This document shows positions 3,927 to 37,665 of a DNA stretch of 46,769 bases, in pieces. Under the pieces are notes generated by a model, which was not told the DNA's origin, did no database searches, and was given only the letters and a program-made list of their open reading frames with translations. Positions within the stretch are counted from its first letter, which is position 1. Each line of letters begins with the position of its first letter. Location: the NCBI RefSeq assembly GCF_022848905.1, contig NZ_JAFIRA010000031.1, forward strand, positions 1 through 46,769. Reading direction: 5' to 3'. Position numbers and translations under genes: made by a program. The stretch is from Thermostichus vulcanus str. 'Rupite'. GTDB taxonomy: Bacteria; Cyanobacteriota; Cyanobacteriia; Thermostichales; Thermostichaceae.

Positions 3927-3932
3927 GAAGCA

Positions 3933-19952: not shown

Positions 19953-21128
19953 TCATGAGGAATGGAGAGCTTTCAAGATCTGGTGAACGGCTGAAATGAG
20001 AATCTCCGCTGCCCGATCTACTTCCTGATCTGTTGTGAATTTCCCTAATCCGATTCGCAAAGCTCCTTCGATTACTTCGGGCGATAAGTTCATAGCCGTA
20101 AGTACATGAGACGGGGCTTCAACTCCACTGGAACAAGCGGATCCCGTGGAGATGGCTAGCTGATGCCGGACTCTCGCAATCACCGCACTGTTTGGGATCC
20201 CTGGGATCGATATATGCAAATTCCCGGCTAGCCGATTGTCCACATCTCCATTGACAACTAAGTTGGGGATCCCTTCTTGGAGTAGAGTTTGCAACCGATC
20301 CCGTAAACATGAGATCCGAACTTCATCCTCAGTCATTTCCAAAGAGCGCAAACAACAGGCTTCCCCTAGTCCAACAATTCCTGGAACATTGAGCGTACCA
20401 GGACGGATCCCGCGTTGATGTCCACCTCCATACATGAGTGGTTCCAGTCGCTGCCCTTGCTTGATAACCAGCGCCCCCACACCTTTTGGAGCATAGAATT
20501 TGTGACCTGAAATGGCAAGAAACGTAATGCCCCATTCCTCAAAGTTAATCGGGATCTTTCCCACAGCCTGCGATCCGTCACAGAGAAAGGGGATCCCATA
20601 TTGTTGGGCAATTTCACCAACCTGTTGAATAGGATAGATTGTCCCGACTTCATTATTGGCAGCCATGACGGAGAGTAGATCAATACCTTCAGAGCAAATT
20701 TTATCGAGATGATCTAAGTCCAGTTGTGCTTGGGAGTCAACCTTTAGAAAGGTGATCTCAGCTAATCCCTTCTTACTTAGTACTGTGCAGGTATCGAGAA
20801 CAGCTTTGTGTTCTGTGGGAAGAATCGCTACTTTGAAGATCTTACCTGTAAGGACTGAGTTTTGCAGGACGAGATTAATACTTTCGGTTGCTCCAGAAGT
20901 GAAGATGACTTCCTTGGGTAAAGATCCTATGAGTTGAGAAACTTGCTTAGTCGCTTGGAAGACAGCATTCTCTGCTTCATCACCAAAAACATGATCAATG
21001 CTACTTGGATTCCCAAATTCTTCTGTCATGTGCCGCAGTACTATGCTGGCAACTCGCGGATCTGTAGGCGTAGTCGCGTGATAGTCCAGATAGATAGGCT
21101 TGGGGAGGGTACTTGCTCGCTCGTTCAT
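19953..21128 (-). CDS. dndA: Cysteine desulfurase, DndA/SspA type
   Basis: This PLP enzyme should mobilise sulfur from cysteine as a protein persulfide for DNA phosphorothioation. The 391-residue protein has the NifS/IscS hallmarks: YLDYHATTPTDPRV near the start, FTSGATESINLVL, the PLP-lysine motif SGHKFYAPKG (Lys 210), GGGHQRGIRPGTLN, and the catalytic cysteine in TGSACSSG (Cys 332). The gene starts 8 bp after the dptH stop, so it appears last in the minus-strand operon. General IscS roles cannot be excluded by sequence, but position argues for phosphorothioation. Unlike dptFGH upstream it contains five GGATCC sites, all in its 3' half. Confidence 0.85.
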   Translation of the reverse strand: MNERASTLPKPIYLDYHATTPTDPRVASIVLRHMTEEFGNPSSIDHVFGDEAENAVFQATKQVSQLIGSLPKEVIFTSGATESINLVLQNSVLTGKIFKVAILPTEHKAVLDTCTVLSKKGLAEITFLKVDSQAQLDLDHLDKICSEGIDLLSVMAANNEVGTIYPIQQVGEIAQQYGIPFLCDGSQAVGKIPINFEEWGITFLAISGHKFYAPKGVGALVIKQGQRLEPLMYGGGHQRGIRPGTLNVPGIVGLGEACCLRSLEMTEDEVRISCLRDRLQTLLQEGIPNLVVNGDVDNRLAGNLHISIPGIPNSAVIARVRHQLAISTGSACSSGVEAPSHVLTAMNLSPEVIEGALRIGLGKFTTDQEVDRAAEILISAVHQILKALHSS

Positions 21129-21136
21129 GCCCCAAA

Positions 21137-24100
21137 TTATAGGTTAGGAAGTCCTTGTAGGGTTTGCCATTGCTGTTTAATGATTTCGGCGATTGCAGCC
21201 ATCTCCTCATCCGATAGGAATGGCACCTGAGCGTAAATGAGATCAGATTGGTTAGTTAGGCGGGCAGCTAGATGTCCTTTACCTAAAAGGTCTTCTGCTC
21301 CTTTTTGACCCAGTGAAATTTCCGAAGTGCCCACGCTCTCGACTCTCAGGATTAAACGATTTCCTAAGTTGTCTCGAAGCTGTACCGGAAGGACATTCGC
21401 ATCAGGACGCTGGGCAGCAAAGATAAGATAAATCCCTGCGGCTCTTGCCTTTACCCCCAAACGTTGTACTGCCGCCGATACAGCCGCTTTATATTCATCG
21501 ACCAGCATCCATTCAGCAAATTCATCGTGAACCAGCCATAGCACCGGAAGCCTATCCTGCTCAGGCACTTTACTATTGTAGTCTTGCAACGATTTCGCTT
21601 TCTGAGGAAGAAACTTGCGGTATCGGTTGTCCATTTCCTCGACCAAAAGCTCTAAAACCTCGATTGCACGGTCTTGGTCAATAATGATTCCTTCTTTGAG
21701 ATGATGTAGGTCGCTGATGTTGGCATAATCAACGCCCATTTTGGGATCGATTAGATAAATGCTTGCCAGTTTGGGAGAGTTCGTTGCACAAATATCAAGA
21801 AGGAGATTTTGCAACAGAACCGATTTACCGCTGCCTGTGGCTCCAGCAATCAGCGTATGTGGAGCGTGTTGTTCTAAATTCTCGAAACTACTGCCTAGAT
21901 TAAGGTAAAGCAATTCACCATCCAGTTCTTTAACCCCAATGACAAAGCTAAGGTTCACACCCGAAGGCGATCGATTGATTTTTCGTTTTGCCCACACTTC
22001 CCGTAAAGAAATCGTTTGACGCTGGGGGCGGGCAACGGTGACCACAATTTCACCAGGCTGACCATAAACGCTAATAATATTCAGGGCGTGAGTGGTCAGG
22101 AGTTGCGATCGCTTCTTCTCGATGTCATCCAACTTTAAATTGTCCGAGCCTTTGAAGCGGACGATCGCTGCATTTGGAGTCAGGCGTTTACCTTCAATTT
22201 TGGCTTGCAGGTTATATCCCAATAGAGCCGTCCGCAGTTTTCCAGCCACTTCCTCCAGCCATTTTTCTGCCGCTGCGTCGCCTTGGCGGGTTTGTGCTTG
22301 TCCCTGCTGCCACCAAGAAACCAACGCTGGACTCGCCCAACTATCTACGCTTTCAATAGGTGAGTCACCCGGAGAGACAGTCGTTTCAGGTTCAACTGGC
22401 TGGTCAGATAGGGGCTGAAGTGGACTGTCATGATTCTCAGACGGATTAATTTTTGCAGGTTTTGTTAGAGGAGACGCTGCTATGTCTACTTTCCCAATTT
22501 CTAAAACCCATGTGACTCGATCCGCAGGTTGTAATGCTTTTGCGACTGTCCAGGGCTTGTCGTCGCCAATCTGTTCACGTATTGGGAAGAGTGGTTGTCC
22601 TGCTTCGTAAGCCAGAACCAGTTTGCGGACAGATTCTCGATTGAACACTTCTTGGAAGCAGCGTTCCACCTTAGGAATCGGCAATCGCTCCCCTTCCACA
22701 TTGCTCTCATTCGTCCCCGACACAAAAACTTGGGAGTAACCAGATAGGTCAATCCGGAGTGTCCCTGAACGGATTTGTTCGCGCCATTGCTCAATGTTCA
22801 GTTTGTTATCGGAACTAAATTCGATGCCGTCGAGTAGAAGATCGCTGAGGCGAGATAGCCAGAGGTCCCGATCAAGACGACCTGGACTGATAAAGAGGGC
22901 ATTGGCAATGCGATCGACTGTTTGCCGGAGTTGGTTCTGTGAAGTCTTGCGAGCATCAGCCAAGCCCGCTACATCAACGTATTTTGCTTCAGAAATAATG
23001 ACTTTCAGAACAGGCTCACCGTCCACATGCTGCGGTGAAATAGCCATGATGTCAGCAATTTGACCTTCTTTTTGTCCTAACCAGGAGGCGTAGTCATCTA
23101 GGAAGTACCAGCCAATTGGGTTTTGCGCTCCTATCTCTGCTGTGATTAAGGCTTTACTGAGAACAACGCCCATTAGCTCGCTGGCAAATCTGCCACATTT
23201 TGCGGCTCGTAACACGATGTCACCAGAAACGGCGTTGGCTTCGTTAATTAGGCGTTCTACCAGTTTGTCTATCCGGTTACTTTCTAAACCTAAATTCAAG
23301 GCTTCCAAGCGTTTTCTAACCAGCACCTTGAGTACATTCAGAGATGCGTCCGAGGAGACGAGGAAGTTCCGTTCATCAGTACGGTTCTGTTGATAGCGAA
23401 TGACCTTGACGCCCTGGTTAACAAGTTGTCGTCGTTCCAGCAAATCATCGTAATTGACTACCCACTCTCCTAAACGGTGGCTTTCGTCAAAAGCTGTCTT
23501 TGTCGTTTCTTCCTGAAAGGAGATTTGACGAGCAGGTAAAAAGTGCTGGTCAGGAGAGCAATCTTCACCCTGAATCAGGCTATGTACCATATCGAGGTAG
23601 GCTTGACCCACTGCCGTCTGCTTGGGACAGGTCAGATAAACAGTGGATTTAAGCTCGCCTTTATCAGATGGGCGTTTCCGTGCCCAACGAGCAGGAGAAT
23701 GGATTAAGATTTCAGCGGTGTTGCTGTCAAACGGTGAACGCTGCCAAACCACTTTTGCCTGCCGGGAGATTGCATCTTGCAGAAACACAATGTCGGCAAA
23801 TTTGCCTTCTCTGGGGGTTGTGGAAGGAACATCGCTGGACATGACTGAGATTCGCAGTCTTGCCATAAAGTCTTGAGAAACCTCACTGGCAAGGAACGCA
23901 TTGGGATCAGCGTCCGAGCTTTCCAACATCTGCTCATAGAGTTGAGCGAGTTTTTGCCTATTCCGATGGCGCAGAACAACCTGACAACGAACTTCTTCCC
24001 GATCGTCTTGCAGTTCTTCACTCAGCTTGTTAACGATCGCCTGAGGTAGCTTGATCGAGTCAGTTTGGTATAGAACAACGCTCAGATTCGTTTTCTCATG

Positions 24101-26461
24101 GGGCAGCAGTTCCACGTAGCGGCGGATGATCCCTAATAAGCGATCGGCTGCTTCAGCCGGATTTTCGTTGGTCGTGAGATCGCTCTCGTCTCGTGTGGGG
24201 CGCTCCATCAGGCTGTAATCGTTGACCATATCAGACACAGAGAGCAATTCGGGCTGCTGACCCTGGTAGCCAACACAGACCTCGGGATAGTAAGGGTGGT
24301 CGAGTTCGTTCCGTAAATCAGCAAAGAATAGGCGAGAATCGCCAAATTTGACCTCTGGCGTAGAAATAATGTACCGAAGGAGTCCTGCTAATTGACGGGC
24401 TTTGACAGCTAGGGAGGCTAATCGTAGTGGATGCCAGGGGGCGATGATGGCGGCAGGCTTACCACGCTCCACTCGAATGCAGCCCAAGCGCAAGATGGGT
24501 TGATAGAAGTCAATGCGATTGAGATCGCCTTTGACGTGTTCTAAAACAGTCTTGAGTAGGTTGCCATAGGCTCTATACTGGTGCAACAGATCCGGACTAG
24601 CAATCCCTTGCCCTTCATCTGTGAAGCTGGCGATCGCTGCCCTGTATCGTTCTGCAAAAGTTTTCCAGGCGGCGGTGATTGCTTCACCCGCATTCTGCGA
24701 GAGACGACCATCCGCGACAGCTTGTTCAATTTTGGTGGGAAGGGTTTTGTCCAGGTCGCTCTTGCAATCGTACTTACTGACCAAGGAACCCCGGTCTTGA
24801 CGATAGGCTGCCATCAGAGTGCCAACGTCTGACAGAGCAATCCCCTGCAACCGCCCCTTTTTACTGACTAGCTCTCTTGATACCTGAGAGAGTTGGAAAG
24901 GGGAGTCTTTAAGTAGCCGTTCTAGATCATTGCCCAACTCCATTCCAATTGCATTTGGATTACACCGCCAGACCAGTTGCGTCTTAGCAATTAGAGCCTG
25001 GGTGCTATCCCGCATTTCGACGTAGAATTTGATTTCTGTCGCAGCTCTTGCTATAGAAGTGTTCTCGCGGTACTTTGCCTTCTTCTGGGATTCTTTTAGC
25101 AGGGCATCGTACTTAAACAGCCAGTGAGTTTCCCATTCAATGTGAGGGGCAGTCAGTTGTTCAATGCCTCGGTAGCGAGTACAAAAATACCGACCCACGT
25201 CAGCATTGAGCTCCAACCATTTGCTTTTGGAAGCTTTTTTCTGGGTTTCAATTTTGAGGGATTTGACGCTAGCAACCGTCTCCGCCTGGTCAAAAAGTCG
25301 CTCAAAGGCTTGTAGTAAACCAATTAAAAAATCTTTACACTCGATCGGCTGTCCGTAGACAAATTTATCCCACTTTGCTTTGAGTTTGCGATCGCCCTCA
25401 AGTTCTTGACGGTGCGCGTCATAAAACTCCCGATCCTCGTCTAGCGCCTCACGTTTATTGCGCTTTTTCAGAGCATTAAGGTACTGGGTTTCTGACTCCG
25501 TTAGAGTATTGGGATATTCATCATTAAAGAAATCCAGGGTAAGAGAAGCAATGTCTGTCTTTTGAGCTTGTAACCCAGAAAACAGCGTGTTGATATTATC
25601 CGATTCCCACTCAAACTTAGAAAGGGCTTCAGCTTCAGAAGTCCAGCCAGCAGAACTGCCAATAAAGGAATGAATAGTAGGATGGGCGATCGCAGGAATG
25701 TCATCCTTTACCTTGTCAAAGGCGGTTTGAAGGTCCTGCTCATCGATGGGTTTACGGCTAGGAGTTTGCTTTAGTAGTAAACACGCACGTTTTGCAAAAG
25801 CTTGCTGAAATAGCTTCTCCCAGCGCTGGGTTTGTCCTAATTGAGTTTCAGGGATGGCACGAAAGTAGCCAGAATCACGGGGAAGCCGCAGGGCAGGCAG
25901 TGCCCATCCAAGTGCGTCTATGACTGGAAGGCTTTCTTCAAGGATGCGCGATCGCGTTTGAACAATGTATTCCGCAAAATTTTCCAGACTAGGTGTACTA
26001 ACTTTCTGGAGTCCATTTAAGGCTTTACGCCAGTGTTCAATCTGCTCAGCAGGAATCGCTAGGTCTTTTGCAGCCAGATTAATCCAGCACTCAATCTGTC
26101 CCTTCAGTTCTTGAGCGCCAATAGAGGTGATGTCATTCAGAGATTGGGCTTGGTCGTCGCTGATGTTAGCAAGTAGTAGCGCAGGGCGATCGCAGTCTGA
26201 ATGGCGCAGGTGAACGGTGCGTTCATCAGTCAAAATTTCGTCAGGTAAGCCGAAGCCTGCCACGAGATCTCGTGGAACTTGAATCTTGATGAGCGGGGCA
26301 AGTTCCGAATCCTGGAGAATGGCTTGACAGATAGCGGCAACCTGATGAGCAGTGAGCCGATTTAGCAGAAACCGTGCAATTCCCTCGTTGGTTTCGTCGG
26401 TTTGAATTGAGCGTTTCAGGAAGTCAGCCGCAACTTGACCAATCAGTTCAATGGTCTGCAT
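21137..26461 (-). CDS. dptH: DptH/SspH-like FtsK/HerA-type ATPase of phosphorothioation-dependent restriction
   Basis: ATG at 26461 has a strong GGAGGTGA ribosome site and shares one base with the dptG stop (TAATG), giving 1774 residues. The large N-terminal region has no motif I recognise. The C-terminal 250 residues are an FtsK/SpoIIIE-like motor: Walker A GATGSGKS at about residue 1538, IYLIDPKMGVDYANI, Walker B LWLVHDEFAEW near 1640, and IFAAQRPDANVLP. Size and neighbours match DptH of Dnd systems and SspH of SspABCD-SspFGH systems; these restrict DNA lacking phosphorothioates. Several GCGATCGC sites and no GGATCC lie inside. Confidence 0.85.
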   Translation of the reverse strand: MQTIELIGQVAADFLKRSIQTDETNEGIARFLLNRLTAHQVAAICQAILQDSELAPLIKIQVPRDLVAGFGLPDEILTDERTVHLRHSDCDRPALLLANISDDQAQSLNDITSIGAQELKGQIECWINLAAKDLAIPAEQIEHWRKALNGLQKVSTPSLENFAEYIVQTRSRILEESLPVIDALGWALPALRLPRDSGYFRAIPETQLGQTQRWEKLFQQAFAKRACLLLKQTPSRKPIDEQDLQTAFDKVKDDIPAIAHPTIHSFIGSSAGWTSEAEALSKFEWESDNINTLFSGLQAQKTDIASLTLDFFNDEYPNTLTESETQYLNALKKRNKREALDEDREFYDAHRQELEGDRKLKAKWDKFVYGQPIECKDFLIGLLQAFERLFDQAETVASVKSLKIETQKKASKSKWLELNADVGRYFCTRYRGIEQLTAPHIEWETHWLFKYDALLKESQKKAKYRENTSIARAATEIKFYVEMRDSTQALIAKTQLVWRCNPNAIGMELGNDLERLLKDSPFQLSQVSRELVSKKGRLQGIALSDVGTLMAAYRQDRGSLVSKYDCKSDLDKTLPTKIEQAVADGRLSQNAGEAITAAWKTFAERYRAAIASFTDEGQGIASPDLLHQYRAYGNLLKTVLEHVKGDLNRIDFYQPILRLGCIRVERGKPAAIIAPWHPLRLASLAVKARQLAGLLRYIISTPEVKFGDSRLFFADLRNELDHPYYPEVCVGYQGQQPELLSVSDMVNDYSLMERPTRDESDLTTNENPAEAADRLLGIIRRYVELLPHEKTNLSVVLYQTDSIKLPQAIVNKLSEELQDDREEVRCQVVLRHRNRQKLAQLYEQMLESSDADPNAFLASEVSQDFMARLRISVMSSDVPSTTPREGKFADIVFLQDAISRQAKVVWQRSPFDSNTAEILIHSPARWARKRPSDKGELKSTVYLTCPKQTAVGQAYLDMVHSLIQGEDCSPDQHFLPARQISFQEETTKTAFDESHRLGEWVVNYDDLLERRQLVNQGVKVIRYQQNRTDERNFLVSSDASLNVLKVLVRKRLEALNLGLESNRIDKLVERLINEANAVSGDIVLRAAKCGRFASELMGVVLSKALITAEIGAQNPIGWYFLDDYASWLGQKEGQIADIMAISPQHVDGEPVLKVIISEAKYVDVAGLADARKTSQNQLRQTVDRIANALFISPGRLDRDLWLSRLSDLLLDGIEFSSDNKLNIEQWREQIRSGTLRIDLSGYSQVFVSGTNESNVEGERLPIPKVERCFQEVFNRESVRKLVLAYEAGQPLFPIREQIGDDKPWTVAKALQPADRVTWVLEIGKVDIAASPLTKPAKINPSENHDSPLQPLSDQPVEPETTVSPGDSPIESVDSWASPALVSWWQQGQAQTRQGDAAAEKWLEEVAGKLRTALLGYNLQAKIEGKRLTPNAAIVRFKGSDNLKLDDIEKKRSQLLTTHALNIISVYGQPGEIVVTVARPQRQTISLREVWAKRKINRSPSGVNLSFVIGVKELDGELLYLNLGSSFENLEQHAPHTLIAGATGSGKSVLLQNLLLDICATNSPKLASIYLIDPKMGVDYANISDLHHLKEGIIIDQDRAIEVLELLVEEMDNRYRKFLPQKAKSLQDYNSKVPEQDRLPVLWLVHDEFAEWMLVDEYKAAVSAAVQRLGVKARAAGIYLIFAAQRPDANVLPVQLRDNLGNRLILRVESVGTSEISLGQKGAEDLLGKGHLAARLTNQSDLIYAQVPFLSDEEMAAIAEIIKQQWQTLQGLPNL

Positions 26462-28032
26462 TATCTCACCTCCGAGGCAAATGGATTTTGAACGTAGGCA
26501 CAAGCATCGGAAAGGCGTTTGAGTAGCCCAATGCTGGCAAGGCGACGTTCAAGCCGTTCGGCATTGGCTACAAAATCTTCGCGATCCGCATCACCGGAGT
26601 TGATTAAATCTGTAGCTTGGCGATCGCCAATAATAAACCCATATTTCTGGTGCAGTTTCGCCAAAAACTCCTGAAACTCCATACGAGTTGGTACAGAAGC
26701 GAGTACCAACGTCCTCAGTAAGGAATCAGTCGGGGCATAACGAGTCCGACGGCTGCCCCGACTGGACGACAATCCGATTTCGCGTGACCAAGTTCCATGA
26801 AACTTGCCGAGGTGTTGCTGATGCCGTTTGACTGCCCTCTCTCGTAGCGAACTTAAAAGATCTGCTGGTGAACCTGAACCATCTGAATCCTCGTCTTTTG
26901 CAGGCCAGGCAAAACGCTCTTGTAGCAAATCGATCGCATCTTCAATAGGGGTGTCGGAGTTGAGGCAAGCCTGCCACTCTGGTGAATCAGCGATGCTACA
27001 AATGGTATATTCTACTGCTCGTTCAGGCAGATCATTGTTCTTCTGAAATTCGTCAGAAGCCAACTCACGCACTGTTGTTTTCTTAGGTGCGACAATCTCT
27101 AGCACAAACTGTGGTGGGGTAGACTCACCCAATGTCGCCTTGGCGCGGCTTAACAGATAGATAATCAGGTGTAACCCAGTAATGGTGACGATATGAGGCA
27201 GGGAGTCGTAGTCGGGTAGGTCACACTGTAAAACATTGAGCCAGTCGTCAGCTAGTTGTTCATATTCGGGCAGCTTCTCATAGGGAAGATAGGGTGGGCT
27301 GCCACTAGTTCTGGGTGCGCTCCGATCCGCAGGAGATTGAAGAGCAAGGACTAGCTGATTCCACTTGGAACCTCGATACTCACTGGAGTAGTTGCGGGAA
27401 ATTATTCCGGTACTTTCCAGACGGGAAAGAATTTCCTCGCCCCGACTGCTCCGGCACAGCATCAGATATAAAAGTTCGCCCGTTCTCCCAAAGAAGCGAC
27501 GATCGTTGCTTACTTTGTCGTCCGTTACTCGTAAGTCTTCATATAGGCAGTCAGGACCGTATGGAAAAACGAATTTAGAACTCCATCGTTTGTTACTATC
27601 GCCCTCAATGGCACTTGATTGAAGAAACTTGACGATTTCTGCAAAGTCCTTGAAGGATTCAAAGCGGGATTTCAGGTAGCTAAAGTCAGGTGAAGCTAGC
27701 CCACCCACGTTACTAGCAATCGCATCCATCCACATCTGCCATCGCTTATTGTCATCTAACCCTTCTGTGGCGATCGCCTCAATGTGAGGGTTGTTGAATA
27801 AGATATTACGGAGATAGAGGCGCGGATAGATTTCGTATCTAAGGTCGTTCAGCTTGCTCTCCACAAAAGCCCGTCCGTTGCTTGCTTCTGATTGCGTAAT
27901 GCAGAGCATTTCCAGAATGCAAAGCCAGGGGGTTTGCTCATCGTACAGCCGATGACCCCAGATGGACTCGTCAACCCACATATTGAGTTGAGACTGCTCG
28001 ATCTGTTGAGGGCGTGGGAGAATTTTAAGCAT
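26461..28032 (-). CDS. dptG: DptG/SspG-like phosphorothioation-dependent restriction protein
   Basis: The 523-residue protein has no catalytic motif I can recognise. I assign it from its place between dptF and dptH and its size, which is close to DptG. Its ATG shares one base with the dptF stop (TAATG at 28030-28034), and its own stop does the same with dptH, so all three are translationally coupled and probably form one complex. It is hydrophilic, with no membrane segments. GCGATCGC sites occur near 26619 and 27769, and no GGATCC is seen. Confidence 0.72.
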   Translation of the reverse strand: MLKILPRPQQIEQSQLNMWVDESIWGHRLYDEQTPWLCILEMLCITQSEASNGRAFVESKLNDLRYEIYPRLYLRNILFNNPHIEAIATEGLDDNKRWQMWMDAIASNVGGLASPDFSYLKSRFESFKDFAEIVKFLQSSAIEGDSNKRWSSKFVFPYGPDCLYEDLRVTDDKVSNDRRFFGRTGELLYLMLCRSSRGEEILSRLESTGIISRNYSSEYRGSKWNQLVLALQSPADRSAPRTSGSPPYLPYEKLPEYEQLADDWLNVLQCDLPDYDSLPHIVTITGLHLIIYLLSRAKATLGESTPPQFVLEIVAPKKTTVRELASDEFQKNNDLPERAVEYTICSIADSPEWQACLNSDTPIEDAIDLLQERFAWPAKDEDSDGSGSPADLLSSLRERAVKRHQQHLGKFHGTWSREIGLSSSRGSRRTRYAPTDSLLRTLVLASVPTRMEFQEFLAKLHQKYGFIIGDRQATDLINSGDADREDFVANAERLERRLASIGLLKRLSDACAYVQNPFASEVR

Positions 28033-29888
28033 TAGAAGTAAACCTCAAGCGTTCGTTCACTTGCGATACCAGCACTATTCATTTCTAGCAGCCGAATATT
28101 GATCGCCTCTTCCCCATCCTCATCCTCGTTATCTAAAGACCGTCGGACTGCAAGCTGCTTAAATACTTGGGTTTTGAAGGCGAGGACATCTTCGTAGCAC
28201 TCCTGTGAAAAGCTACTTGGAAGAGCACCTTCAGCAACTCTGCTCAGATATTCGTATCGAGTTAGGGTTAGGTTGAAACGAATTGGCTCAACGTTTGAAG
28301 CGAGATTAACAACTAAACTTGGCTTCTTTCGGCTTTGATCTAACTCCACTGACACACTTTCACCCCGTTTCCGAGAAACGGAGACGGATTCTTCGTATAC
28401 TTTGCTAATTCGGGCTTGGGAGTAGCTCCCAGAAGTTGCTAGAAGGAGTTCGTCTTGATTATTGACCAGCAACCCTGTAAAGATACGATTAAGTCCCCTG
28501 ATCAGACGTGAAGTAATGGGCTTAGGAACCTTCTTATCTTCTTGTAAAGCCCTGTAAAGGTCGTTCAAATACTCTCCGGCATACTGAAAGATCGTGAGAT
28601 CCCAGAGCTTCATATCTGTTGTGCGATCGCCAGGAATAGTAAAAAACAACCGCTGCCGTTGGGCTTGAAGAACGCCAAGAAACTCTTCTCGTCCCTTAGC
28701 AGCATCCCCTTCCAAATAAGAACGCTGTTGAGCCTGGTATTTTAAGTCGGCTCCGTAGAATGAATCAGATAACACTAAGTCAGCGTACAGTGGCTGTAGT
28801 TCTGGATCGTCTGCTCCAAAGATCAGAATATTGTCAATCTGGTTACTGGTTTCAGCGCCAATACCAAAGCCACGTAGGACTTTGAAAACCTCGGTTGATT
28901 CACGCCGCCGCTCCGGTAGGTTCTCGCCGAAGATATTGCGGTAGAGGCTGGCACGCGATGTTGTATCAGCCGCAATCACATCAGGAACTTGCCGACAATT
29001 GAGTAACCGATCTTTTGCGTCTGGATGACCTAATAGTGCGTTGGCAACCAGTAGAAGCAACTGGCGAACTGGAAGATGCATCTGGTTTAGTTCGCACAGT
29101 TCGAGCAGATCGGTCAACCGTTCTTGTGTGGTTCGATCCGCATCAGTTCCCTCTAGACGCTGTTTGTTTTGCCAAATCGGGCATCCTTGGCTCTGATAAG
29201 CACACTGATTGCAGTCGCCCCAACCCGGATGCTCCAGAACCGCTTTCAGAATCCGGGGAAACAAGACGGCAGCACTTTGGCGACTCAGGTTGTAGAGTTT
29301 GACTTGGAAGCCATCTAACTCACGTAAGTCGCCTACTAAAAGATCCTCGATCGCCTTTCGTACTGGCTTCATTTCTTCAATTTGTGCTGCTTCTGTCCAT
29401 GCTTCCACTAGCTGTCCGTCGTTCGCTGCAATCAGATAGACCTTGGAAGTGTCCTTACCCAAGATGGCAGTTGCAATTTGTGGCAGGAGTGACTGCTTCT
29501 CTTTTAGAGTGAGTTCACTCAAATCCTTAATGACGATTAGCTGGCGTACCGAAGGGCTGCTTGCAGCATCGCCCAATGCCAAGCGTTGAATCTTGCTATC
29601 CTTTTGCCAATCATCAACAGACCCACCAAACTCTTCCCAAATCTGCCGACAATAGTAGGTTTTTCCATCCCCAGCCGTACCCGTCAAAATAACCGTCTTG
29701 GGCGAAGCTGAACGGAAGTTATCAAGCAATTCACCTAGATACTCAGTTTCAAAAGTAATCGGTTGAAGTTTTTTCCGTCGTAAAGTTCGTTGAATCACCT
29801 CATCATACATATTGTCATTACGGGGAATGGGTCCGTATTGCCGAAGGAAATCGATCCACGTCGAAGTTCTACAGGTCAAAGAATCCAT
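28032..29888 (-). CDS. dptF: DptF/SspF-like P-loop ATPase of phosphorothioation-dependent restriction
   Basis: The 618-residue protein has Walker A GTAGDGKT at residues 70-77, a Walker B-like LIVIKDLSEL near 117-126, and a sensor-like 'YLIAANDGQLV'. A cysteine cluster (C226-x2-C229-x6-C236 in GDCNQCAYQSQGCPIW) could bind metal. The GTAGDGKT P-loop and the downstream dptG-dptH order fit DptF of Dnd restriction or the equivalent SspF. Its ATG (29888) lies 25 bp after the sulfurtransferase stop, so modification and restriction genes are physically joined. HIP1-type GCGATCGC occurs near 28623. Confidence 0.82.
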   Translation of the reverse strand: MDSLTCRTSTWIDFLRQYGPIPRNDNMYDEVIQRTLRRKKLQPITFETEYLGELLDNFRSASPKTVILTGTAGDGKTYYCRQIWEEFGGSVDDWQKDSKIQRLALGDAASSPSVRQLIVIKDLSELTLKEKQSLLPQIATAILGKDTSKVYLIAANDGQLVEAWTEAAQIEEMKPVRKAIEDLLVGDLRELDGFQVKLYNLSRQSAAVLFPRILKAVLEHPGWGDCNQCAYQSQGCPIWQNKQRLEGTDADRTTQERLTDLLELCELNQMHLPVRQLLLLVANALLGHPDAKDRLLNCRQVPDVIAADTTSRASLYRNIFGENLPERRRESTEVFKVLRGFGIGAETSNQIDNILIFGADDPELQPLYADLVLSDSFYGADLKYQAQQRSYLEGDAAKGREEFLGVLQAQRQRLFFTIPGDRTTDMKLWDLTIFQYAGEYLNDLYRALQEDKKVPKPITSRLIRGLNRIFTGLLVNNQDELLLATSGSYSQARISKVYEESVSVSRKRGESVSVELDQSRKKPSLVVNLASNVEPIRFNLTLTRYEYLSRVAEGALPSSFSQECYEDVLAFKTQVFKQLAVRRSLDNEDEDGEEAINIRLLEMNSAGIASERTLEVYF

Positions 29889-29913: not shown

Positions 29914-30708
29914 TCATAGGTGACAAGCAAAACAAGGTACATTCTCATCTTGACTATCTAGAACAGTGTCTAATGCCTGTGCAAGAAATTTTAAGTCTGC
30001 TCTCTTCTGTTCTATAGTAAGCATCCTCTTATGATCGGTAATAATCTCATCTTTTCGTTCTAGCAACTCAAGAAGAGTTTCCCCTTGAGTCCAGGTGTAG
30101 GTCCTGCCATCGCTGTGTTCCTGTTCATACCTGACTGCTTCTGCAAACAGATCAGGATGCTCCTCAGCCAACATCACCCATTCATACTTGCGCTGAAAGA
30201 AACAGAAAAAGCACCCAGATCGGGATCGCCAACGGTAATAATCCGGCAACCCGATTCCACTTTCATCCAAGAGCCGCAAAATATCCTCTTTCACTAATCC
30301 CCGCTCTTTGAATGGGAAAACAGGTTTGATATTAGGCTTAGTGGAGATATACCCATCCCGATTCTCATCAGCACGGATCCCGACATAGCTGATCGCCTCA
30401 TCATCCCCGACCCATTTCTCCAGAGGCTTGATCTTCATCTGTACCGTACACCAGCGCATCTTGGGTGAAGGCAAAACCCCACCATAGACATCCAGCCAGT
30501 GATCAAACCCCCGCTCAGACTCTAGGTAGGTGATTTTGATCCCCAACCGCGCCTTGAGCCGATCCAGGTAGTCGTAAGTCTCCTGTAGCTCCTTACCCGT
30601 GTCACAGAAGAAATACTCCATCTCAGGGATCTCCTTGTGCAGCAGGATCGCCAAGGCAGTGCTGTCCTTGCCACCCGATAGTCCTAAGATGTGCCTGACC
30701 TGTCCCAT
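29914..30708 (-). CDS. sspD: PAPS reductase-family sulfurtransferase, SspD/DndC-like
   Basis: The protein should adenylate the DNA backbone (ATP pyrophosphatase) and pass on sulfur. ATG 30708 places the PP-loop SGGKDS at residues 11-16; a TTG at 30717 adds three residues. Later motifs are YFCDTGKELQETYDYLDRL, KMRWCTVQMKIKP and YVGIRADENRDGY, all typical of PAPS reductase-like enzymes. Cysteines occur in SGCFFCFFQ and a C-terminal CFAC pair, possible Fe-S or persulfide sites. At 264 residues it is much shorter than DndC (about 500), which supports the Ssp-type assignment. One GGATCC lies near 30370. Confidence 0.82.
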   Translation of the reverse strand: MGQVRHILGLSGGKDSTALAILLHKEIPEMEYFFCDTGKELQETYDYLDRLKARLGIKITYLESERGFDHWLDVYGGVLPSPKMRWCTVQMKIKPLEKWVGDDEAISYVGIRADENRDGYISTKPNIKPVFPFKERGLVKEDILRLLDESGIGLPDYYRWRSRSGCFFCFFQRKYEWVMLAEEHPDLFAEAVRYEQEHSDGRTYTWTQGETLLELLERKDEIITDHKRMLTIEQKRADLKFLAQALDTVLDSQDENVPCFACHL

Positions 30709-30826
30709 CAAGTGCAACCTCGCAACCCAGGGAGCCCCTCCCTGAACAGTTTAGAGGCTCATTTGAAAACTGTCATGCGGCAGCTACCGGCAGCTACACC
30801 CAAGTTTACTGGGGAAGCACTGACCC

Positions 30827-30922: not shown

Positions 30923-30966
30923 CTATACATTGAATCTATACATTGAATAGAATCTATACATTGAAT
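30923..30966 (+). repeat. Three copies of CTATACATTGAAT at the Uma2 gene end
   Basis: CTATACATTGAAT occurs at 30923-30935, 30936-30948 and 30954-30966; the last two are separated by AGAAT. The final copy encodes, on the minus strand, the last residues and stop of the Uma2 gene (F-N-V-stop). The other two are duplications of that gene end in the spacer. Confidence 0.8.
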
Positions 30967-31559
30967 AAAGACTCAGCTTTAAGCTCTTGTCCCGAAAAGT
31001 ATGAAGACTGGATTCTCTCTATGCCTTTGAACTGAGAAGCCTGATAATCACGTCCATTCTGTAAAGTAAAAACAGTAACCTTCCCTTCCTCAGGATCTAC
31101 AACCCAATATTCAGGGATCCCTAATTCTTGATATTCCTTGGTCTTGATCTCATAATCACGTTCTCGATTCTCCTCACCGGGGCTGACGACTTCTACCACC
31201 AAGAGTGGAGGACGTTCCACGATGGCTGATTTGGGGTTTTGCTTGCGAAGTGCTTCCCAGTCCTCAGCGTGAATGATACAAAGATCTGGCTCCCGTGAGG
31301 TTCGGATCCCCGTTCGGATCCCGATGCCCGTGGCAAAGACCTTATCCTTGCGACCCAAGCGCCCTATTTCTTGGTTCATCCATAAGAAAAGCAAGCGGAT
31401 GATCTCTGCATGCAGAGGGCTGGCTGTCGGTATAATGATGATATTCCCATCTTCTAATTCGTGGCGAAAATCAGTGCCATCGTTGTAGTCAAGATACTCA
31501 GCAAAGGTAACTTTTTGGTTTGTGCCTGCGTGCCCCTGACGAATGGGTGTGCGAGTCAT
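30954..31559 (-). CDS. Uma2 family endonuclease (between sspC- and sspD-like genes)
   Basis: ATG 31559, preceded by AGGGGTACTAAG, begins a 201-residue protein; the longer frame to 31703 starts in non-conserved sequence. The PD-(D/E)XK-like core of Uma2 (DUF820) is visible: EPDLCII (Asp), PPLLVVEVVSPGEENRERDYEIKTKEY (E...K) and LGIPEYWVVDPEEG. Uma2 genes are abundant in cyanobacteria and their target is generally unknown. Here the gene is collinear with the phosphorothioation operon and sits between ATPase and sulfurtransferase, so it is probably cotranscribed. Whether it is part of the system or a passenger cannot be told. Confidence 0.85.
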   Translation of the reverse strand: MTRTPIRQGHAGTNQKVTFAEYLDYNDGTDFRHELEDGNIIIIPTASPLHAEIIRLLFLWMNQEIGRLGRKDKVFATGIGIRTGIRTSREPDLCIIHAEDWEALRKQNPKSAIVERPPLLVVEVVSPGEENRERDYEIKTKEYQELGIPEYWVVDPEEGKVTVFTLQNGRDYQASQFKGIERIQSSYFSGQELKAESLFNV

Positions 31560-31668
31560 CTTAGTACCCCTGTTTTTTACTATCCGTTCCGTTAGCACAG
31601 CCTGCCGTAGGTAATGAACTCTATCACCATAGCCAGATCTGCCCTCTACGCATAGTCGCTGTATTAAA

Positions 31669-31690
31669 GCTGCGCCGCCGACGCGAACAG
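31669..31690 (+). repeat. Short dispersed repeat (GCTGCGC...GCGAACAG), copy 2
   Basis: A 22-bp shorter version, GCTGCGCCGCCGACGCGAACAG, with the same flanks as copies at 30827-30855 and 36183-36212. It lies upstream of the Uma2 start at 31559, in a stretch that otherwise shows no gene. Confidence 0.5.
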
Positions 31691-31718
31691 CAGACCGAGC
31701 CAAAGCCGCTAATTTGTC

Positions 31719-31821: not shown

Positions 31822-34800
31822 CTACTTGAGATGAAATCTGAGCCTGTCATCACTTGGATCCTGTCTGGGCTTTTTATGGCCCAACACATCTGTAGGCTCT
31901 TCGGCGGCAAAGATTGTCTCCGTCAAGCCTGTTACTAACGCCTGTTGGATCTGGGGATCCCTACACTCCCTTAGGATCTTGTCGATCATCGGCTGGACTG
32001 TGGCATGGATCCCTTCATCCATCCAAACCATGCGGTGGGTTTCCTTCCCGTCCGGTCGGGTAATCGTAATCCGCCGTGCCGCTACGCACGACCCTTGGTC
32101 TACAAACCCTTCTTTTTTGGATGCCCTCACCTCAGATTGCAACGCTTCCAGATTCTTAAACCGCCGCGCCAGATCGCTCAGATTCACCTCAAACCGAGTT
32201 ACATCCTCATCCGACCACGACTCAGCAGGCTTATCTGCCACAATCATCAACAACGACTCCAGCCACTCGTGATCTGGTTTGATCTCATCCACTGCTGCCA
32301 ATACAAAACTTCTCAGGGTGGGCTCTAACACCTGCCCAACCAAATAGTTAGCCCTGATCTTCAAGTCAGCCCGAAGATTATCCATAGGAGAACGGATCCC
32401 GAATGCACTGTAAAGCAACTCCTGACTGTCTGTAACCAGCCGCTCGTAGCAGGTTTGGATCTCGTGAAGTGCCTGCACTAATTTTTTGCGAAAGATCCGA
32501 GCCGTAGAGCCATCATCCTCCAGTCCTGAAACGAAGGGATCCATTCCAACCGCTTTGGGCAACGCCGTGAAGAGTAATTCATCCGGCTCCTGAGCCTGCA
32601 TCAAGGTCTGCAACACCGCTTGAGACTCAGAACTCAACCGAGTCGTCTTGCGAGTATGAGCAGGCAGTTTTTTAACAAATTGGAATAGGGGCTTCACCAC
32701 TGATAGCAACGTCAGATTACGGATTCCCTGCCCCGTGGGAGCCTTAGACCGTAACACATCCTCAAGCTCCTGAAACACCTGTGACCGCAGTCCGGTAATC
32801 TCGAAATACTTCACCGCAAACCGAGAGGGATCCTTGACCAACAACTCAAAATGCTCCGCCCCTAGCACTGGGATAAACGTCCCATCTTTGTAAACACTCA
32901 CATCATCCACATGATGCAGCAACACCGCCGCCAGCAAGACCGGAATGGATCCCCGCTTCACCCCATAGGGAGGCGCCTCTAGGTGAGCATACAGTTCCCC
33001 TAAACTGCGCTGTTGCTGGGATCCCAAACAAAACCCCTCAATGGCCTGCCAAACTCTCGCTACTCCCTCATCGGTTGGAGGATAAAAACCCCAAGTTCCG
33101 TCCATCTGCCGGTGGATCCCTGACTGAGCAAGCAGCGAGTCATACATACTCACCTCAGGCCCATGCCCCTCCAACCCCAAACGAGGGATCTCGGCCTTCT
33201 CCAGCATCCCCTCCAGCAATACCCGCCGTGCCTTTGCCCCCTGAGAGGTCAGCTCCCGCCGATTAATCAATTCATTCCACAGCACCAACCCTTGGTCATA
33301 CACCTGGTCGCACACTGCCGAAAGTTGGGCATTCAGTTCCCGTTCATGGGTAAACACCACCGGGATCCCCTGCACCCAACACTGAGCCTTGCCCACATCA
33401 AATCCCATCGCAATCGCCTCATCCAGCAAAGCTTTTGCCTGAGACAGCCGCTGCCGCACCTCCAATCGCGCCACCCCATCCGTTTGTAGCTCTGGGGCTT
33501 TTCTCACCTGCTGCAACGCCCCATACTCCTGAGCCGTCACCCGGATCCGTCCCAAGCCCGTCACCGATACCATCACCAATGGCTTGCCATCTTTTGTCTG
33601 AGCAGGGACTTCCTCTGGCAGTTCTTCCGTCACCCAGTACCCCAGTAGCCCATCCGCATCGGTGCTCTCACAAGCCAACTCTGCCAACGACTCACCACCA
33701 TCCAGATACCGCCGCTCAAAGTAGCGCAACGTCCCTGTCTCATAGCTATGCCGCTGCACCACCACCGGCTTGAGGGGATGGTAGGTCGTCAACAAATCCA
33801 CTAAGGATCCCTGTTCCTGTTGCAGATACTCCTGCAGCTGTAACTCCACATCAAAATCGGATCCCTGCCAGAGCCGCAACTCATCCATCAGCCGCCGATG
33901 AGTCACCTGCCCCTTATCCACTAGATGTTGAATAATCTCCTGCCAGTAGTTTTGACTCTCAGGATTCGGCTCATCGCACAACGCCAAGGCCACCACTGAG
34001 CGCTTGGCCCGCAGGGATCCCGTCGTGGTCACTAGGTTGAGCACCCCAATGGTTTTCAGCACCTTCACCCAATCGGGATCCCAATGCCGCGCATCCTCCA
34101 CCCGTTCCTGAACCTCCAGCCAACGTTGCGACTTGGATCCCTTGCCCACCGACTCCACAAAGTAGTCGTAGACCTGATGGAGTTGCAGAGTGGGCCAATG
34201 GCCTGAACTGAACAGGGTCGTTCGCAGAAACTCCTGAAAGGAAAACGGCTCCTCACTGGTCAAGAACGTAAACAGCGAGCGGTCATTCTGGGCATAGCGT
34301 AAACAAAGCTGGGGTAACGCCAACGCTGCCAGGGGATGTAACGGATAGACCCGTCCCAAAGTCTCCCCCGTCCCCACATCGGGTATCTCAGCCTTAAGCT
34401 GCTCATACCAAGTGGATCCCCAATCACTAAAGTCTTTCGCTTGGATAATGGCGCGTCCCATCACCTGCACCATCTGCTCAGCCGATTCTACAAACGGGAT
34501 CTCCTCAAACCGCCCCTGAATCTTGGCCCACTCTTGCCGCTGTGTTGTGGCCAACCGTGCCCCATAGTCGGTAAATCCTTGATGCAGGATCCCTAGGACA
34601 TAGACCTCCCGCCCCTGCTCCGCCAACTGCTGCAACAGATAGACATCCTCCTCCCCCTGATGCTGGGCGGTATACTCCAGCGCCTTGCCCAACTCATCCA
34701 GCACCAACAGGACGGGAACCCCTGCCGCCTTTTGGATGGCTTCCACCAGCTTCAGTACCTCCACATTGGTAAGACTGGCTCTCTTGTCCAGCTCCCCTTC

Positions 34801-35289
34801 CAAGTCCTTGAGATCTACAATCGCTCGCCATGCCTCAGGTCGCTGATGAACGGGCCAAAACTCTTCAATCCCTCTTTCCAAGGCGCGCAACACCGTATGG
34901 CTGATGGGTTCTCGTTGCGCCGCCACCACCGCCCGGATCCAGCCCTGCTGCGGCACTCTCTCCAGTGTTTTGATGCTCTCGGATTCTGCCCCCAAAGCTT
35001 GAGAAGCAATCACCATTGCCTTCTGACGCATGGGATCCCTGTGCTTGCCCAGCAATGCGGTCAAAAAGTGAGCAAATGCCGACTTCCCGGTTCCATACAC
35101 CCCCGTCAGTGTCCAAGCCCGTGCCTGTTTGCGCTGGGTACCCACATCCCTCAGGATCCGCTGTAGTGCTAACACCGCCCGCTCCGTCGGGATATACCCC
35201 TCCAGACTCTCAGGATCCCCCATGTCCCGCTCCAAATTAATGGAACGGCTGTAGCGGCGATTCACATGGATCAGCTCAGACAGGCGCAT
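31822..35289 (-). CDS. sspC: Large P-loop ATPase, SspC-like
   Basis: ATG 35289 gives 1155 residues starting MRLSELIHVNRRYSRSINLE; an upstream in-frame TTG at 35316 is possible. Counted from that TTG, Walker A GVYGTGKS is at 72-79 and Walker B PVLLVLDELG at 201-210. The remaining roughly 950 residues lack motifs I recognise. The ATPase sits with a DUF4007 gene and a PAPS reductase-like gene, the SspB-SspC-SspD trio of single-strand phosphorothioation systems. BrxC-like ATPases of BREX have a similar P-loop start, but no PglZ is present. It is rich in GGATCC (about 20 sites by eye), so it looks long resident in this genome. Confidence 0.72.
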   Translation of the reverse strand: MRLSELIHVNRRYSRSINLERDMGDPESLEGYIPTERAVLALQRILRDVGTQRKQARAWTLTGVYGTGKSAFAHFLTALLGKHRDPMRQKAMVIASQALGAESESIKTLERVPQQGWIRAVVAAQREPISHTVLRALERGIEEFWPVHQRPEAWRAIVDLKDLEGELDKRASLTNVEVLKLVEAIQKAAGVPVLLVLDELGKALEYTAQHQGEEDVYLLQQLAEQGREVYVLGILHQGFTDYGARLATTQRQEWAKIQGRFEEIPFVESAEQMVQVMGRAIIQAKDFSDWGSTWYEQLKAEIPDVGTGETLGRVYPLHPLAALALPQLCLRYAQNDRSLFTFLTSEEPFSFQEFLRTTLFSSGHWPTLQLHQVYDYFVESVGKGSKSQRWLEVQERVEDARHWDPDWVKVLKTIGVLNLVTTTGSLRAKRSVVALALCDEPNPESQNYWQEIIQHLVDKGQVTHRRLMDELRLWQGSDFDVELQLQEYLQQEQGSLVDLLTTYHPLKPVVVQRHSYETGTLRYFERRYLDGGESLAELACESTDADGLLGYWVTEELPEEVPAQTKDGKPLVMVSVTGLGRIRVTAQEYGALQQVRKAPELQTDGVARLEVRQRLSQAKALLDEAIAMGFDVGKAQCWVQGIPVVFTHERELNAQLSAVCDQVYDQGLVLWNELINRRELTSQGAKARRVLLEGMLEKAEIPRLGLEGHGPEVSMYDSLLAQSGIHRQMDGTWGFYPPTDEGVARVWQAIEGFCLGSQQQRSLGELYAHLEAPPYGVKRGSIPVLLAAVLLHHVDDVSVYKDGTFIPVLGAEHFELLVKDPSRFAVKYFEITGLRSQVFQELEDVLRSKAPTGQGIRNLTLLSVVKPLFQFVKKLPAHTRKTTRLSSESQAVLQTLMQAQEPDELLFTALPKAVGMDPFVSGLEDDGSTARIFRKKLVQALHEIQTCYERLVTDSQELLYSAFGIRSPMDNLRADLKIRANYLVGQVLEPTLRSFVLAAVDEIKPDHEWLESLLMIVADKPAESWSDEDVTRFEVNLSDLARRFKNLEALQSEVRASKKEGFVDQGSCVAARRITITRPDGKETHRMVWMDEGIHATVQPMIDKILRECRDPQIQQALVTGLTETIFAAEEPTDVLGHKKPRQDPSDDRLRFHLK

Positions 35290-35389
35290 AGATAAAGTGA
35301 CCGAGAGTAGGCTCAATCCTAAGAATAACGGCCATCCTCTGTCGGAACCCTCTGAGCTAGAGTAAAGCTGTCCATCTCAACGGATCTGC

Positions 35390-36079
35390 ATGACTCCAAC
35401 CTTTGAGGTGACCTCTCAAACAAACCTTCCTCAACCTACCCCCCCAGACATCAGTGATCTCGTCATCGAGGACGATCAACCTGTGGACAGCCTCTACTCC
35501 GAAAAACTGCAACGGCTGCTCACTAACGCCCTCTATGCCTCCTTCAAGCCAGGGATCCCGTTTTTAGTCACGGCCAATGTGGGACTGTTTTATGCCCTGA
35601 AAACCAATCCCCTTGTGCCGGATGTGATGCTGAGTTTGGGGGTCTCTGCTCCCACTAACTTTGAGCGTCGAGAAGACCGCACCTACTTTGTCTGGGAAAT
35701 GGGCAAACCCCCCGAAGTGGCCATCGAGATTGTCTCCAATCGCAAAGGTCACGAACTGGGATCCAAACTCACCGCCTATGCCCATGCCGGAGTCAGCTAT
35801 TACGTGGTCTACGATCCCCTAGTACAACTGAAGGAATTACAGGGATCCCGTTTAGCTATCTTCGAGCGGCAGGGATCCCAACTTGTCCCCTATGACTCCA
35901 CCTGGATGCCAGATGTGGGTCTGGGGCTGACCCTGTGGCAGGGATCCTTTGAGGGGGTGACGGTCGAGTGGCTACGCTGGTGTGATCAAGAGGGGCAGAT
36001 TCTATTGACTGGTGAAGAACGCTCCGAACAACTGCTGGAACTGCTGCGTTCCCATGGCATCACGCCCCCAGAGAACTAG
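35390..36079 (+). CDS. Uma2 family endonuclease (opposite strand, between sspC- and sspB-like genes)
   Basis: The 229-residue protein shows the Uma2/DUF820 core: a conserved Asp in LVPDVMLSLGV, PPEVAIEIVSNRKGHELGSKLTAYAHAGV (E...K) and YYVVYDPLVQL. It diverges from the ATPase gene 100 bp away, and its last 20 bp overlap the end of the DUF4007 gene on the other strand (36060-36079). This places a plus-strand gene in the middle of a minus-strand operon, so the DUF4007 gene and the ATPase gene must be transcribed across it or separately. The gene contains six or more GGATCC sites, like the host. Confidence 0.85.
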   Translation: MTPTFEVTSQTNLPQPTPPDISDLVIEDDQPVDSLYSEKLQRLLTNALYASFKPGIPFLVTANVGLFYALKTNPLVPDVMLSLGVSAPTNFERREDRTYFVWEMGKPPEVAIEIVSNRKGHELGSKLTAYAHAGVSYYVVYDPLVQLKELQGSRLAIFERQGSQLVPYDSTWMPDVGLGLTLWQGSFEGVTVEWLRWCDQEGQILLTGEERSEQLLELLRSHGITPPEN

Positions 36080-37212: not shown

Positions 37213-37665
37213 TTATGTTTCCTCCATTGGTTGCCCCATCAGCCACGACACCGGGTTATCCACTGTGACAGATACAGTTGCCGCCCGTCCCACTTGCCGT
37301 AGCAGCCTATCATCAACCGTCAAAAAGACATCAACCTGTCCCTGCTCGGCAGAGGCCACGTGCAAACTATCCAACAGTTGGATCCCCACAGATTGCAATG
37401 CTTGACCGCGCTGCACTACTGTCTCGTCTAAGGGGATCCTAGCCTTGGCCACCTGCAATGACCTCAGCAATCGTTCCCGCCGTTCAGGATCCGGTGTGGC
37501 CCGCATCTCAAACTCCACCACGTCGCTCGTGAACAGCAAACAGTCCCCACTCTCACAACGGCTTAGGATCAGTAGCACCGCCTCTGCCTCTAGCCGGATT
37601 CGCTCTTGGCTCTGGTCATCAAAGGGGCGATTCAAACAACAGACATCCAGATAAATCCGTTGCAT
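37213..37665 (-). CDS. PIN domain ribonuclease (toxin-like)
   Basis: This 150-residue PIN domain has the acidic residues expected for Mg2+-dependent RNA cleavage: Asp 7 in MQRIYLDVCCLNRPFDD, Glu 51/53 in DVVEFEMR, Asp 99 in LLDSLHVASAE, and Asp 118/119 in FLTVDDRLL. It is the first gene of a minus-strand run PIN-small partner-DUF4007. Its start codon overlaps, on opposite strands, the start codon of the methyltransferase gene (37664), so no space remains for a promoter outside coding DNA. A VapC-type toxin is the likely class. Confidence 0.85.
   Translation of the reverse strand: MQRIYLDVCCLNRPFDDQSQERIRLEAEAVLLILSRCESGDCLLFTSDVVEFEMRATPDPERRERLLRSLQVAKARIPLDETVVQRGQALQSVGIQLLDSLHVASAEQGQVDVFLTVDDRLLRQVGRAATVSVTVDNPVSWLMGQPMEET

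What the first reader, a model, noticed from the sequence alone, without database searches (positions are those of the whole stretch)
21137..29888. Palindrome signature switches from GGATCC to GCGATCGC exactly over dptFGH
Seen: outside this block GGATCC (mostly GGGATCCC) occurs several times per kb on both sides, e.g. about 20 times in the 3.5-kb ATPase gene. In the 8.75 kb of dptF-dptG-dptH I find none, but about nine GCGATCGC (near 22085, 24630, 25388, 25687, 25949, 26186, 26619, 27769, 28623), a site I do not find elsewhere in the window. The last GGATCC on each side are about 20598 and 30370. Inference: the restriction module alone was imported from a GCGATCGC (HIP1)-type cyanobacterium and joined to a resident modification locus.
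Basis: partly seen in the sequence, partly recalled or inferred. Interest (0 to 1): 0.8.

Follow-up and report, generated by a model that had tools for sequence, protein, structure and literature searches.

The report
Swapped-in DNA-cutting module in cyanobacterial defence locus
In this hot-spring-type cyanobacterium, the three phage-attacking genes (sspFGH) of a DNA-sulphur defence locus were recently imported from an unrelated cyanobacterial lineage and recombined into a locus whose other genes have a different ancestry, which shows that the attack half of such a system can be exchanged independently of its self-marking half.

Summary
GGATCC occurs 150 times in the window but never between 20,591 and 30,375. 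All nine GCGATCGC (HIP1) sites lie at 22,105-28,623. The inference also largely holds, with corrections. The locus is SspABCD-SspFGH, not Dpt/Dnd. The host genome is GGGATCCC-rich (4,959 copies) with background HIP1 (80). Its FGH genes are 92-96% identical in protein, dS 0.3-0.5, to those of Phormidium tenue FACHB-886, a HIP1 genome. SspA, B, C, D and AroA are near or at synonymous saturation in the same pair. Eight of the nine HIP1 sites sit at the same positions in P. tenue. The trees reject a common history for FGH and the modification genes. The foreign segment runs from about codon 17 of sspF (~29,838) to about codon 29 of sspA (~21,041); both edges lie in conserved coding motifs, pointing to homologous recombination and probably replacement of an older sspFGH. 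A second family member (SM2_3_2) has the same mosaic with FGH from a different HIP1 lineage. Across cyanobacteria FGH is far less diverged than the BC genes beside it. SspFGH, GGGATCCC genomes and module shuffling were known; this is a well-resolved new case. Activity is not shown.

The parts
21041..29838 (-). imported HIP1-type segment: sspF from about codon 17, sspG, sspH and the first ~28 codons of sspA
   Evidence: maximum-segment test on 1695 informative sites, 29,838 to 21,042, score 596 against a permutation maximum of 476 in 2000; left breakpoint ML 21,041 (interval 21,024-21,052); 88-90% DNA identity to Phormidium tenue FACHB-886
28032..29888 (-). sspF, 618 aa, Walker A GTAGDGKT at residue 70
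   Evidence: PADLOC SspF 5e-245; motif
26461..28032 (-). sspG, 523 aa
   Evidence: PADLOC SspG 1.7e-209
21137..26503 (-). sspH, 1788 aa ORF as called from TTG; PADLOC match begins at residue 15, an ATG at 26,461; C-terminal FtsK/SpoIIIE domain, Walker A GATGSGKS at 1554
   Evidence: PADLOC SspH E=0; Pfam FtsK_SpoIIIE
19953..21128 (-). sspA, cysteine desulfurase, 391 aa; chimeric: first ~28 codons P. tenue-like, rest nearest to SM2_3_2; SGHK lysine and SACSS cysteine motifs present
   Evidence: PADLOC DndA/SspA; breakpoint; motifs
29914..30717 (-). sspD, PAPS-reductase-like, SGGKDS motif; 94% identical to SM2_3_1 SspD
30954..31703 (-). Uma2-family ORF between sspD and sspC; no homologue at 60 bits or more in the fetched relatives' ssp loci
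   Evidence: Pfam Uma2 2.1e-35
31822..35316 (-). sspC, ATPase, 1164 aa, Walker A GVYGTGKS at residue 72; 22 GGATCC
   Evidence: PADLOC SspC E=0
35390..36079 (+). second Uma2-family ORF, opposite strand
   Evidence: Pfam Uma2 2.1e-13
36060..37010 (-). sspB, DUF4007 protein
   Evidence: PADLOC SspB 1.8e-109; Pfam DUF4007
37664..39724 (+). DNA phosphorothioation-associated putative methyltransferase (TIGR04096); homologous DNA lies beyond sspB in several other ssp loci
   Evidence: NCBIfam 2.4e-262

Best explanation
The block is the restriction (effector) module of an SspABCD-SspFGH phosphorothioate defence system. It entered a GGGATCCC-type genome from a HIP1-type cyanobacterium related to Phormidium tenue FACHB-886 and the uncultured Leptolyngbyaceae bin N1. 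The foreign segment runs from about codon 17 of sspF to about codon 29 of sspA. Because both edges fall inside conserved coding motifs (FLRQYGPIPRN in SspF, LDYHATTPTDPR in SspA), the most likely route is homologous recombination that replaced an older sspFGH in a locus already carrying sspB, C, D and A of GGATCC-type ancestry. The swap could be tolerated because, as shown in E. coli with Vibrio SspFGH, a heterologous SspBCD that makes the CPSCA mark protects against SspFGH damage. Expected function, inferred from that paper: SspABCD writes single-strand sulphur marks, and SspFGH damages unmarked phage DNA. Shown here: the foreign ancestry, the mosaic and its breakpoints, intact frames and key motifs. 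Inferred: homologous recombination, replacement rather than insertion, and activity.
For: Motif switch. dS window-P. tenue: F 0.48, G 0.29, H 0.42; A, B, C, D saturated. Fourfold-site identity in that pair: AroA 31.6%, BC 32.4%, FGH 74.4%. FGH tree joins window with P. tenue and Leptolyngbyaceae N1 (SH-aLRT 99); AU rejects window+SM2_3_2 as an FGH clade (p 4e-45) and window+P. tenue as an SspC clade (p 2e-47). BC, D and FGH topologies reject each other, with or without the window. 8 of 9 HIP1 sites sit at the same positions in P. tenue. The FGH-bearing cyanobacteria outside the family whose genomes were counted are HIP1 genomes with 3,122-13,152 copies. Breakpoints. SM2_3_2 shows the same mosaic with another donor: 93-98% DNA identity to G010 over the 3' half of sspG and the covered part of sspH. 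D-F spacing and sspF 5' end match SM2_3_1 and SM2_3_2. Cross-compatibility of SspFGH with a foreign SspBCD: PMC8092258.
Against: Replacement is not proven: no relative with an older GGATCC-type sspFGH was found, and the SM2_3_1 contig ends 103 codons into sspF. The right breakpoint is less sharp than the left; SM2_3_1's sspF fragment is about as close to the window as P. tenue's. sspD of the window and SM2_3_1 are also unusually close (dS 0.46 against 1.48 for sspC), so D and F may have moved together at some stage. P. tenue is a relative of the donor, not the donor itself (about 10% DNA divergence), and the two MAG relatives have low coverage (3.7-3.8x by contig name).
Confidence: 0.85

Rival explanations
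1. The FGH module was inserted beside a modification locus that had no restriction module before, by end-joining or a mobile element rather than replacement of an older FGH.
For: ssp loci without FGH exist: G031 has B, C, D and no FGH; G019 has other genes between D and A. Wang et al. report most sspBCD without FGH or E (PMC8092258).
Against: Both junctions lie inside coding sequence in conserved motifs of sspF and sspA, and sspA is chimeric. The family-specific D-F junction is shared by three family members.
Confidence: 0.3
2. The D-FGH block reached this genome in two steps: FGH first joined a GGATCC-family D in another relative, then D-FGH moved together into this lineage.
For: SspD is 94% identical to SM2_3_1 (dS 0.46) while SspC is 69% (dS 1.48), SspB saturated and AroA 68-69%. 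sspA, sspD and the Uma2 ORF are AT-richer than the host.
Against: SM2_3_1 has only 103 codons of sspF, too few to place. It is compatible with the main explanation and only changes the order of events.
Confidence: 0.4
3. No import: FGH is as old as the rest of the locus and lacks GGATCC because of its lower GC or some constraint, with HIP1 arising by chance.
For: From the block's own composition only 1.9 GGATCC are expected, so zero alone is unremarkable.
Against: 9 HIP1 against 0.14 expected; 8 shared in place with P. tenue; dS and tree discordance; sspA is just as GC-poor and has 5 GGATCC.
Confidence: 0.02
4. Assembly chimera or contamination: a HIP1-organism fragment was wrongly joined into the contig.
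For: Draft genome of 120 contigs.
Against: No N in the window; the same architecture in an independent genome, SM2_3_2; the chimeric sspA keeps an intact frame; listed contamination 0.94%.
Confidence: 0.03
5. Transfer went the other way, from the GGGATCCC lineage into HIP1 cyanobacteria.
For: Closeness alone gives no direction.
Against: The window's FGH carries HIP1 and no GGATCC, and FGH copies across HIP1 genomes carry HIP1; FGH is found in many HIP1 genomes and, by SspG search, in only one other genome of the family.
Confidence: 0.02

Closest known systems
SspABCD-SspFGH phosphorothioate defence (Wang et al. 2021, PMC8092258)
   Same: All seven proteins match PADLOC Ssp models; SspF has Walker A and SspH a C-terminal FtsK/SpoIIIE domain, as in the Vibrio anguillarum FF-93 system; FGH beside BCD.
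   Different: Cyanobacterial; sspA lies in the operon after sspH; Uma2-family ORFs and a TIGR04096 protein are interleaved or adjacent; FGH and the rest have different origins, with mapped junctions.
HIP-type iterated palindromes in cyanobacteria (Elhai 2015, PMC4390886)
   Same: GGGATCCC is the dominant octamer in Synechococcus JA-3-3Ab and JA-2-3B; GCGATCGC in most other cyanobacteria; both patterns are seen here.
   Different: That paper describes genome-wide signatures; here a switch between two signatures inside one operon marks an import.
Detection of gene transfer by oligomer frequencies in cyanobacteria (PMC3497702)
   Same: Uses octamer make-up, strongly affected by HIP1, to flag foreign genes.
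   Different: Here the signature was backed by orthologous-site, dS, breakpoint and tree tests.
Patchy pairing of sspBCD with sspFGH, sspE or none (Wang et al. 2021, PMC8092258)
   Same: They inferred possible horizontal transfer because the BCD tree does not follow the restriction partner.
   Different: No individual event, donor lineage or junction is described in the passages read; this locus provides them.

Membership tests
SspABCD-SspFGH system | SspB (DUF4007), SspC ATPase, SspD PAPS-reductase-like protein and a cysteine desulfurase encoded together | tested here: met
   PADLOC and Pfam; SspC Walker A, SspD SGGKDS, SspA lysine and cysteine motifs
SspABCD-SspFGH system | SspF with Walker A, SspG, SspH with C-terminal FtsK/SpoIIIE similarity, adjacent to BCD | tested here: met
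   definition from PMC8092258
SspABCD-SspFGH system | single-strand phosphorothioate at 5'-CPSCA-3' | not testable with these tools
   needs mass spectrometry or PT sequencing of the strain
SspABCD-SspFGH system | SspFGH damages DNA lacking the mark and restricts phages | not testable with these tools
   needs expression and plaque or TUNEL assays
   F and G match only SspF and SspG models, H only SspH plus weak MADS/HerA models, and SspC only SspC and BrxC models in PADLOC; shared features are the cysteine desulfurase and weak DndC similarity of SspD
HIP1-type sequence signature (imported block) | GCGATCGC strongly over-represented | tested here: met
   in the block: 9 against 0.14 expected; the host genome as a whole is at background, 80 against control 69
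GGGATCCC-type genome signature (host) | GGGATCCC strongly over-represented genome-wide | tested here: met
   host 4,959 against control 67; five other genomes of the genus 3,094-4,511

The most novel reading that the evidence does not exclude
SspFGH behaves in cyanobacteria as an exchangeable cassette in the slot between sspD and sspA: it spreads across orders by homologous recombination at its conserved edges, independently of the mark-writing genes, because those writers share one motif. It was captured at least twice in this one small family, and other effector genes can fill the same slot.
Probability: 0.55. Interest if true: 0.65.

Novelty: new member of a known kind. Interest (0 to 1): 0.5.

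Why it matters
A restriction module that attacks unmarked DNA should harm a cell that receives it without a matching writer. This locus shows, at the level of DNA, that such a module moved without its own writer into a locus with a distantly related one (BC about 55% identical between donor relative and host). That fits the view that the mark, not the writer protein, is what the effector needs, and it makes the view testable by mixing defined pairs. It also shows that a switch of iterated palindromes can mark imports inside a single operon; two other such islands in this genome overlap or adjoin defence genes.

Tried and rejected
SspG was used as query against viral contigs: no relative found. 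Plasmids gave one good match, Pseudanabaena ABRG5-3 plasmid ABRG53b at 67% DNA identity, too distant to be the donor but showing that a full locus can ride on a mobilizable plasmid. GC content was considered as the boundary marker and rejected because it dips over sspA, sspD and a Uma2 ORF as well. Chance absence of GGATCC was considered: by the block's own composition it is not surprising, so it was not used as proof. Synteny with genus relatives was checked: G003 matches the aroA side up to 39,797 and then diverges, so the age of the whole locus in this genome stays open. No structure prediction was run: families were clear by sequence.
Full report
OBSERVATION. Exact counting confirms the finding. 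The window has 150 GGATCC and none between 20,591 and 30,375; it has nine GCGATCGC, all between 22,105 and 28,623. Flank density is 4.06 GGATCC per kb; in 400 kb sampled from the same genome it is 3.2-3.8 per kb, and the longest GGATCC-free gap there is 4,260 bp against 9,784 bp here. Genome-wide GGGATCCC occurs 4,959 times and GCGATCGC 80 times, the latter close to its reversed control of 69. From the block's own first-order composition 1.9 GGATCC and 0.14 GCGATCGC are expected. The zero is therefore the absence of host enrichment, while nine HIP1 sites are a real excess.

WHAT THE GENES ARE. PADLOC identifies, on the minus strand, sspB (36,060-37,010), sspC (31,822-35,316), sspD (29,914-30,717), sspF (28,032-29,888), sspG (26,461-28,032), sspH (21,137-26,503) and sspA (19,953-21,128). 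SspB is the DUF4007 protein. The 686-residue protein at 37,664-39,724 is the phosphorothioation-associated putative methyltransferase TIGR04096. Two Uma2-family ORFs are interleaved. Frames are open and Walker A motifs in SspF, SspH and SspC, the SGGKDS motif in SspD, and the SGHK and SACSS motifs in SspA are present. The name dptFGH is wrong: this is SspFGH, which its discoverers report has no sequence homology with DndFGH (PMC8092258).

WHERE FGH COMES FROM. The closest relatives are Phormidium tenue FACHB-886 (92, 96 and 94% identity for F, G, H by tblastn) and an uncultured Leptolyngbyaceae bin, N1. The FGH-bearing cyanobacteria outside the host's family whose genomes were counted are HIP1 genomes with 3,122-13,152 copies and at most 61 GGGATCCC. 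Eight of the nine HIP1 sites are present at the aligned position in P. tenue, which has eleven in its FGH. dS between window and P. tenue is 0.48, 0.29 and 0.42 for F, G, H, while A, B, C and D are saturated. At fourfold sites the pair shares 31.6% in aroA, 32.4% in BC and 74.4% in FGH.

TREES. The window's FGH groups with P. tenue and N1 (SH-aLRT 99). FGH of SM2_3_2, a genome of the host's family with 5,581 GGGATCCC, groups with Leptolyngbya FACHB-60 and G010 (100). Holding window and SM2_3_2 together for FGH is rejected (AU p 4e-45), as is holding window and P. tenue together for SspC (p 2e-47). For B, C, D and A the window joins family members SM2_3_1 or SM2_3_2. On twelve taxa the BC, D and FGH data each reject the other two topologies, also when the window is left out. 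FGH exchange is thus not peculiar to this genome. For example, P. tenue and G010 differ by 47% in BC and 9% in FGH.

BREAKPOINTS. With P. tenue and SM2_3_2 as references, the P. tenue-like segment runs from 29,838 to 21,042 (score 596; maximum of 2,000 permutations 476). The left breakpoint is 21,041 (21,024-21,052), about codon 29 of sspA, just after LDYHATTPTDPR. The right edge lies near codon 17 of sspF, in FLRQYGPIPRN; upstream of it, the sspD end, the short spacer and the sspF start resemble SM2_3_1 and SM2_3_2. Junctions inside conserved coding sequence on both sides favour homologous recombination, and replacement of an older sspFGH, over a simple insertion. Replacement remains an inference.

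A SECOND CASE. In SM2_3_2 the FGH block also lacks GGATCC, has five HIP1 sites and is followed by a GGATCC-rich sspA. From the middle of sspG through the part of sspH present in both it is 93-98% identical in DNA to G010, except one 90% stretch; G010 has 13,152 HIP1 copies. This is a separate import.

HISTORY OF THE REST. "Resident" is relative. The five other genomes searched in the genus have no SspC match, and synteny with G003 stops at aroA. SspD of the window is 94% identical to that of SM2_3_1 although SspC is 69% and AroA about 69%, so D also moved within the family, perhaps with F. SM2_3_1 itself has about 1.1 GGATCC per kb in sampled contigs but 2.9 in the half-contig holding its ssp genes, so its ssp locus may be acquired too.

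MECHANISM. From Wang et al. 2021 (PMC8092258): SspBCD with a cysteine desulfurase marks CPSCA; SspFGH damages unmarked DNA, is harmful to cells without the mark, and is tolerated when a foreign SspBCD makes the same mark. That makes a swap of FGH alone workable. Whether the present system is active was not tested.

KNOWN AND NEW. SspFGH, GGGATCCC in Synechococcus JA-3-3Ab and JA-2-3B (PMC4390886), oligomer-based detection of transfer (PMC3497702) and patchy pairing of sspBCD with restriction partners were known. New here, as far as the literature searched shows, is a mapped exchange of the restriction module alone, with donor lineage, junctions and an independent repeat.

Noticed in passing
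G000:C1:255,741-261,122 (L059): Another GGATCC-free stretch with five HIP1 sites at the contig end; its ORFs include a type I restriction HsdR and an HsdS-like protein.
   Followed up: partly
G000:C11:18,219-31,900 (L060, L061): GGATCC-poor stretch with eleven HIP1 sites; HmaA helicase and HmaB methylase matches in PADLOC fall within it.
   Followed up: partly
G000:C25:41,787-42,951 (L062): Three HIP1 sites within 1.2 kb, in a 907-residue ORF not identified.
   Followed up: no
L055:14,680-17,641 (genome G019): Between sspD and sspA, in place of FGH, a 223-residue ORF and a 762-residue protein with a weak DndB (PF14072) match: possible alternative effector in the same slot.
   Followed up: no
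L038:7,644-9,895 (Phormidium tenue FACHB-886): A 593-residue HATPase protein (weak MzaB match) and a 155-residue ORF lie between sspD and sspF; the window has only a short spacer there.
   Followed up: no
L122 (NZ_AP017562.1, Pseudanabaena ABRG5-3 plasmid ABRG53b): Mobilizable plasmid carrying a phosphorothioation-associated methyltransferase, DUF4007 protein, Uma2, FGH-like genes, a DUF262 protein, a kinase and a cysteine desulfurase.
   Followed up: partly
L047 against L125-L130 (genome G006, SM2_3_1): The ssp-bearing half-contig has 2.9 GGATCC per kb, other sampled contigs 0.4-1.4: acquired locus or mis-binned contig.
   Followed up: partly
L052 (G007:C206): sspC matches residues 11-106 directly followed by about 900-1116 at a contig end: internal deletion or assembly artefact.
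   Followed up: no
window 14,466-15,689 (+): IS605 OrfB / TnpB-like protein (Cas12f-like nuclease domain match).
   Followed up: no
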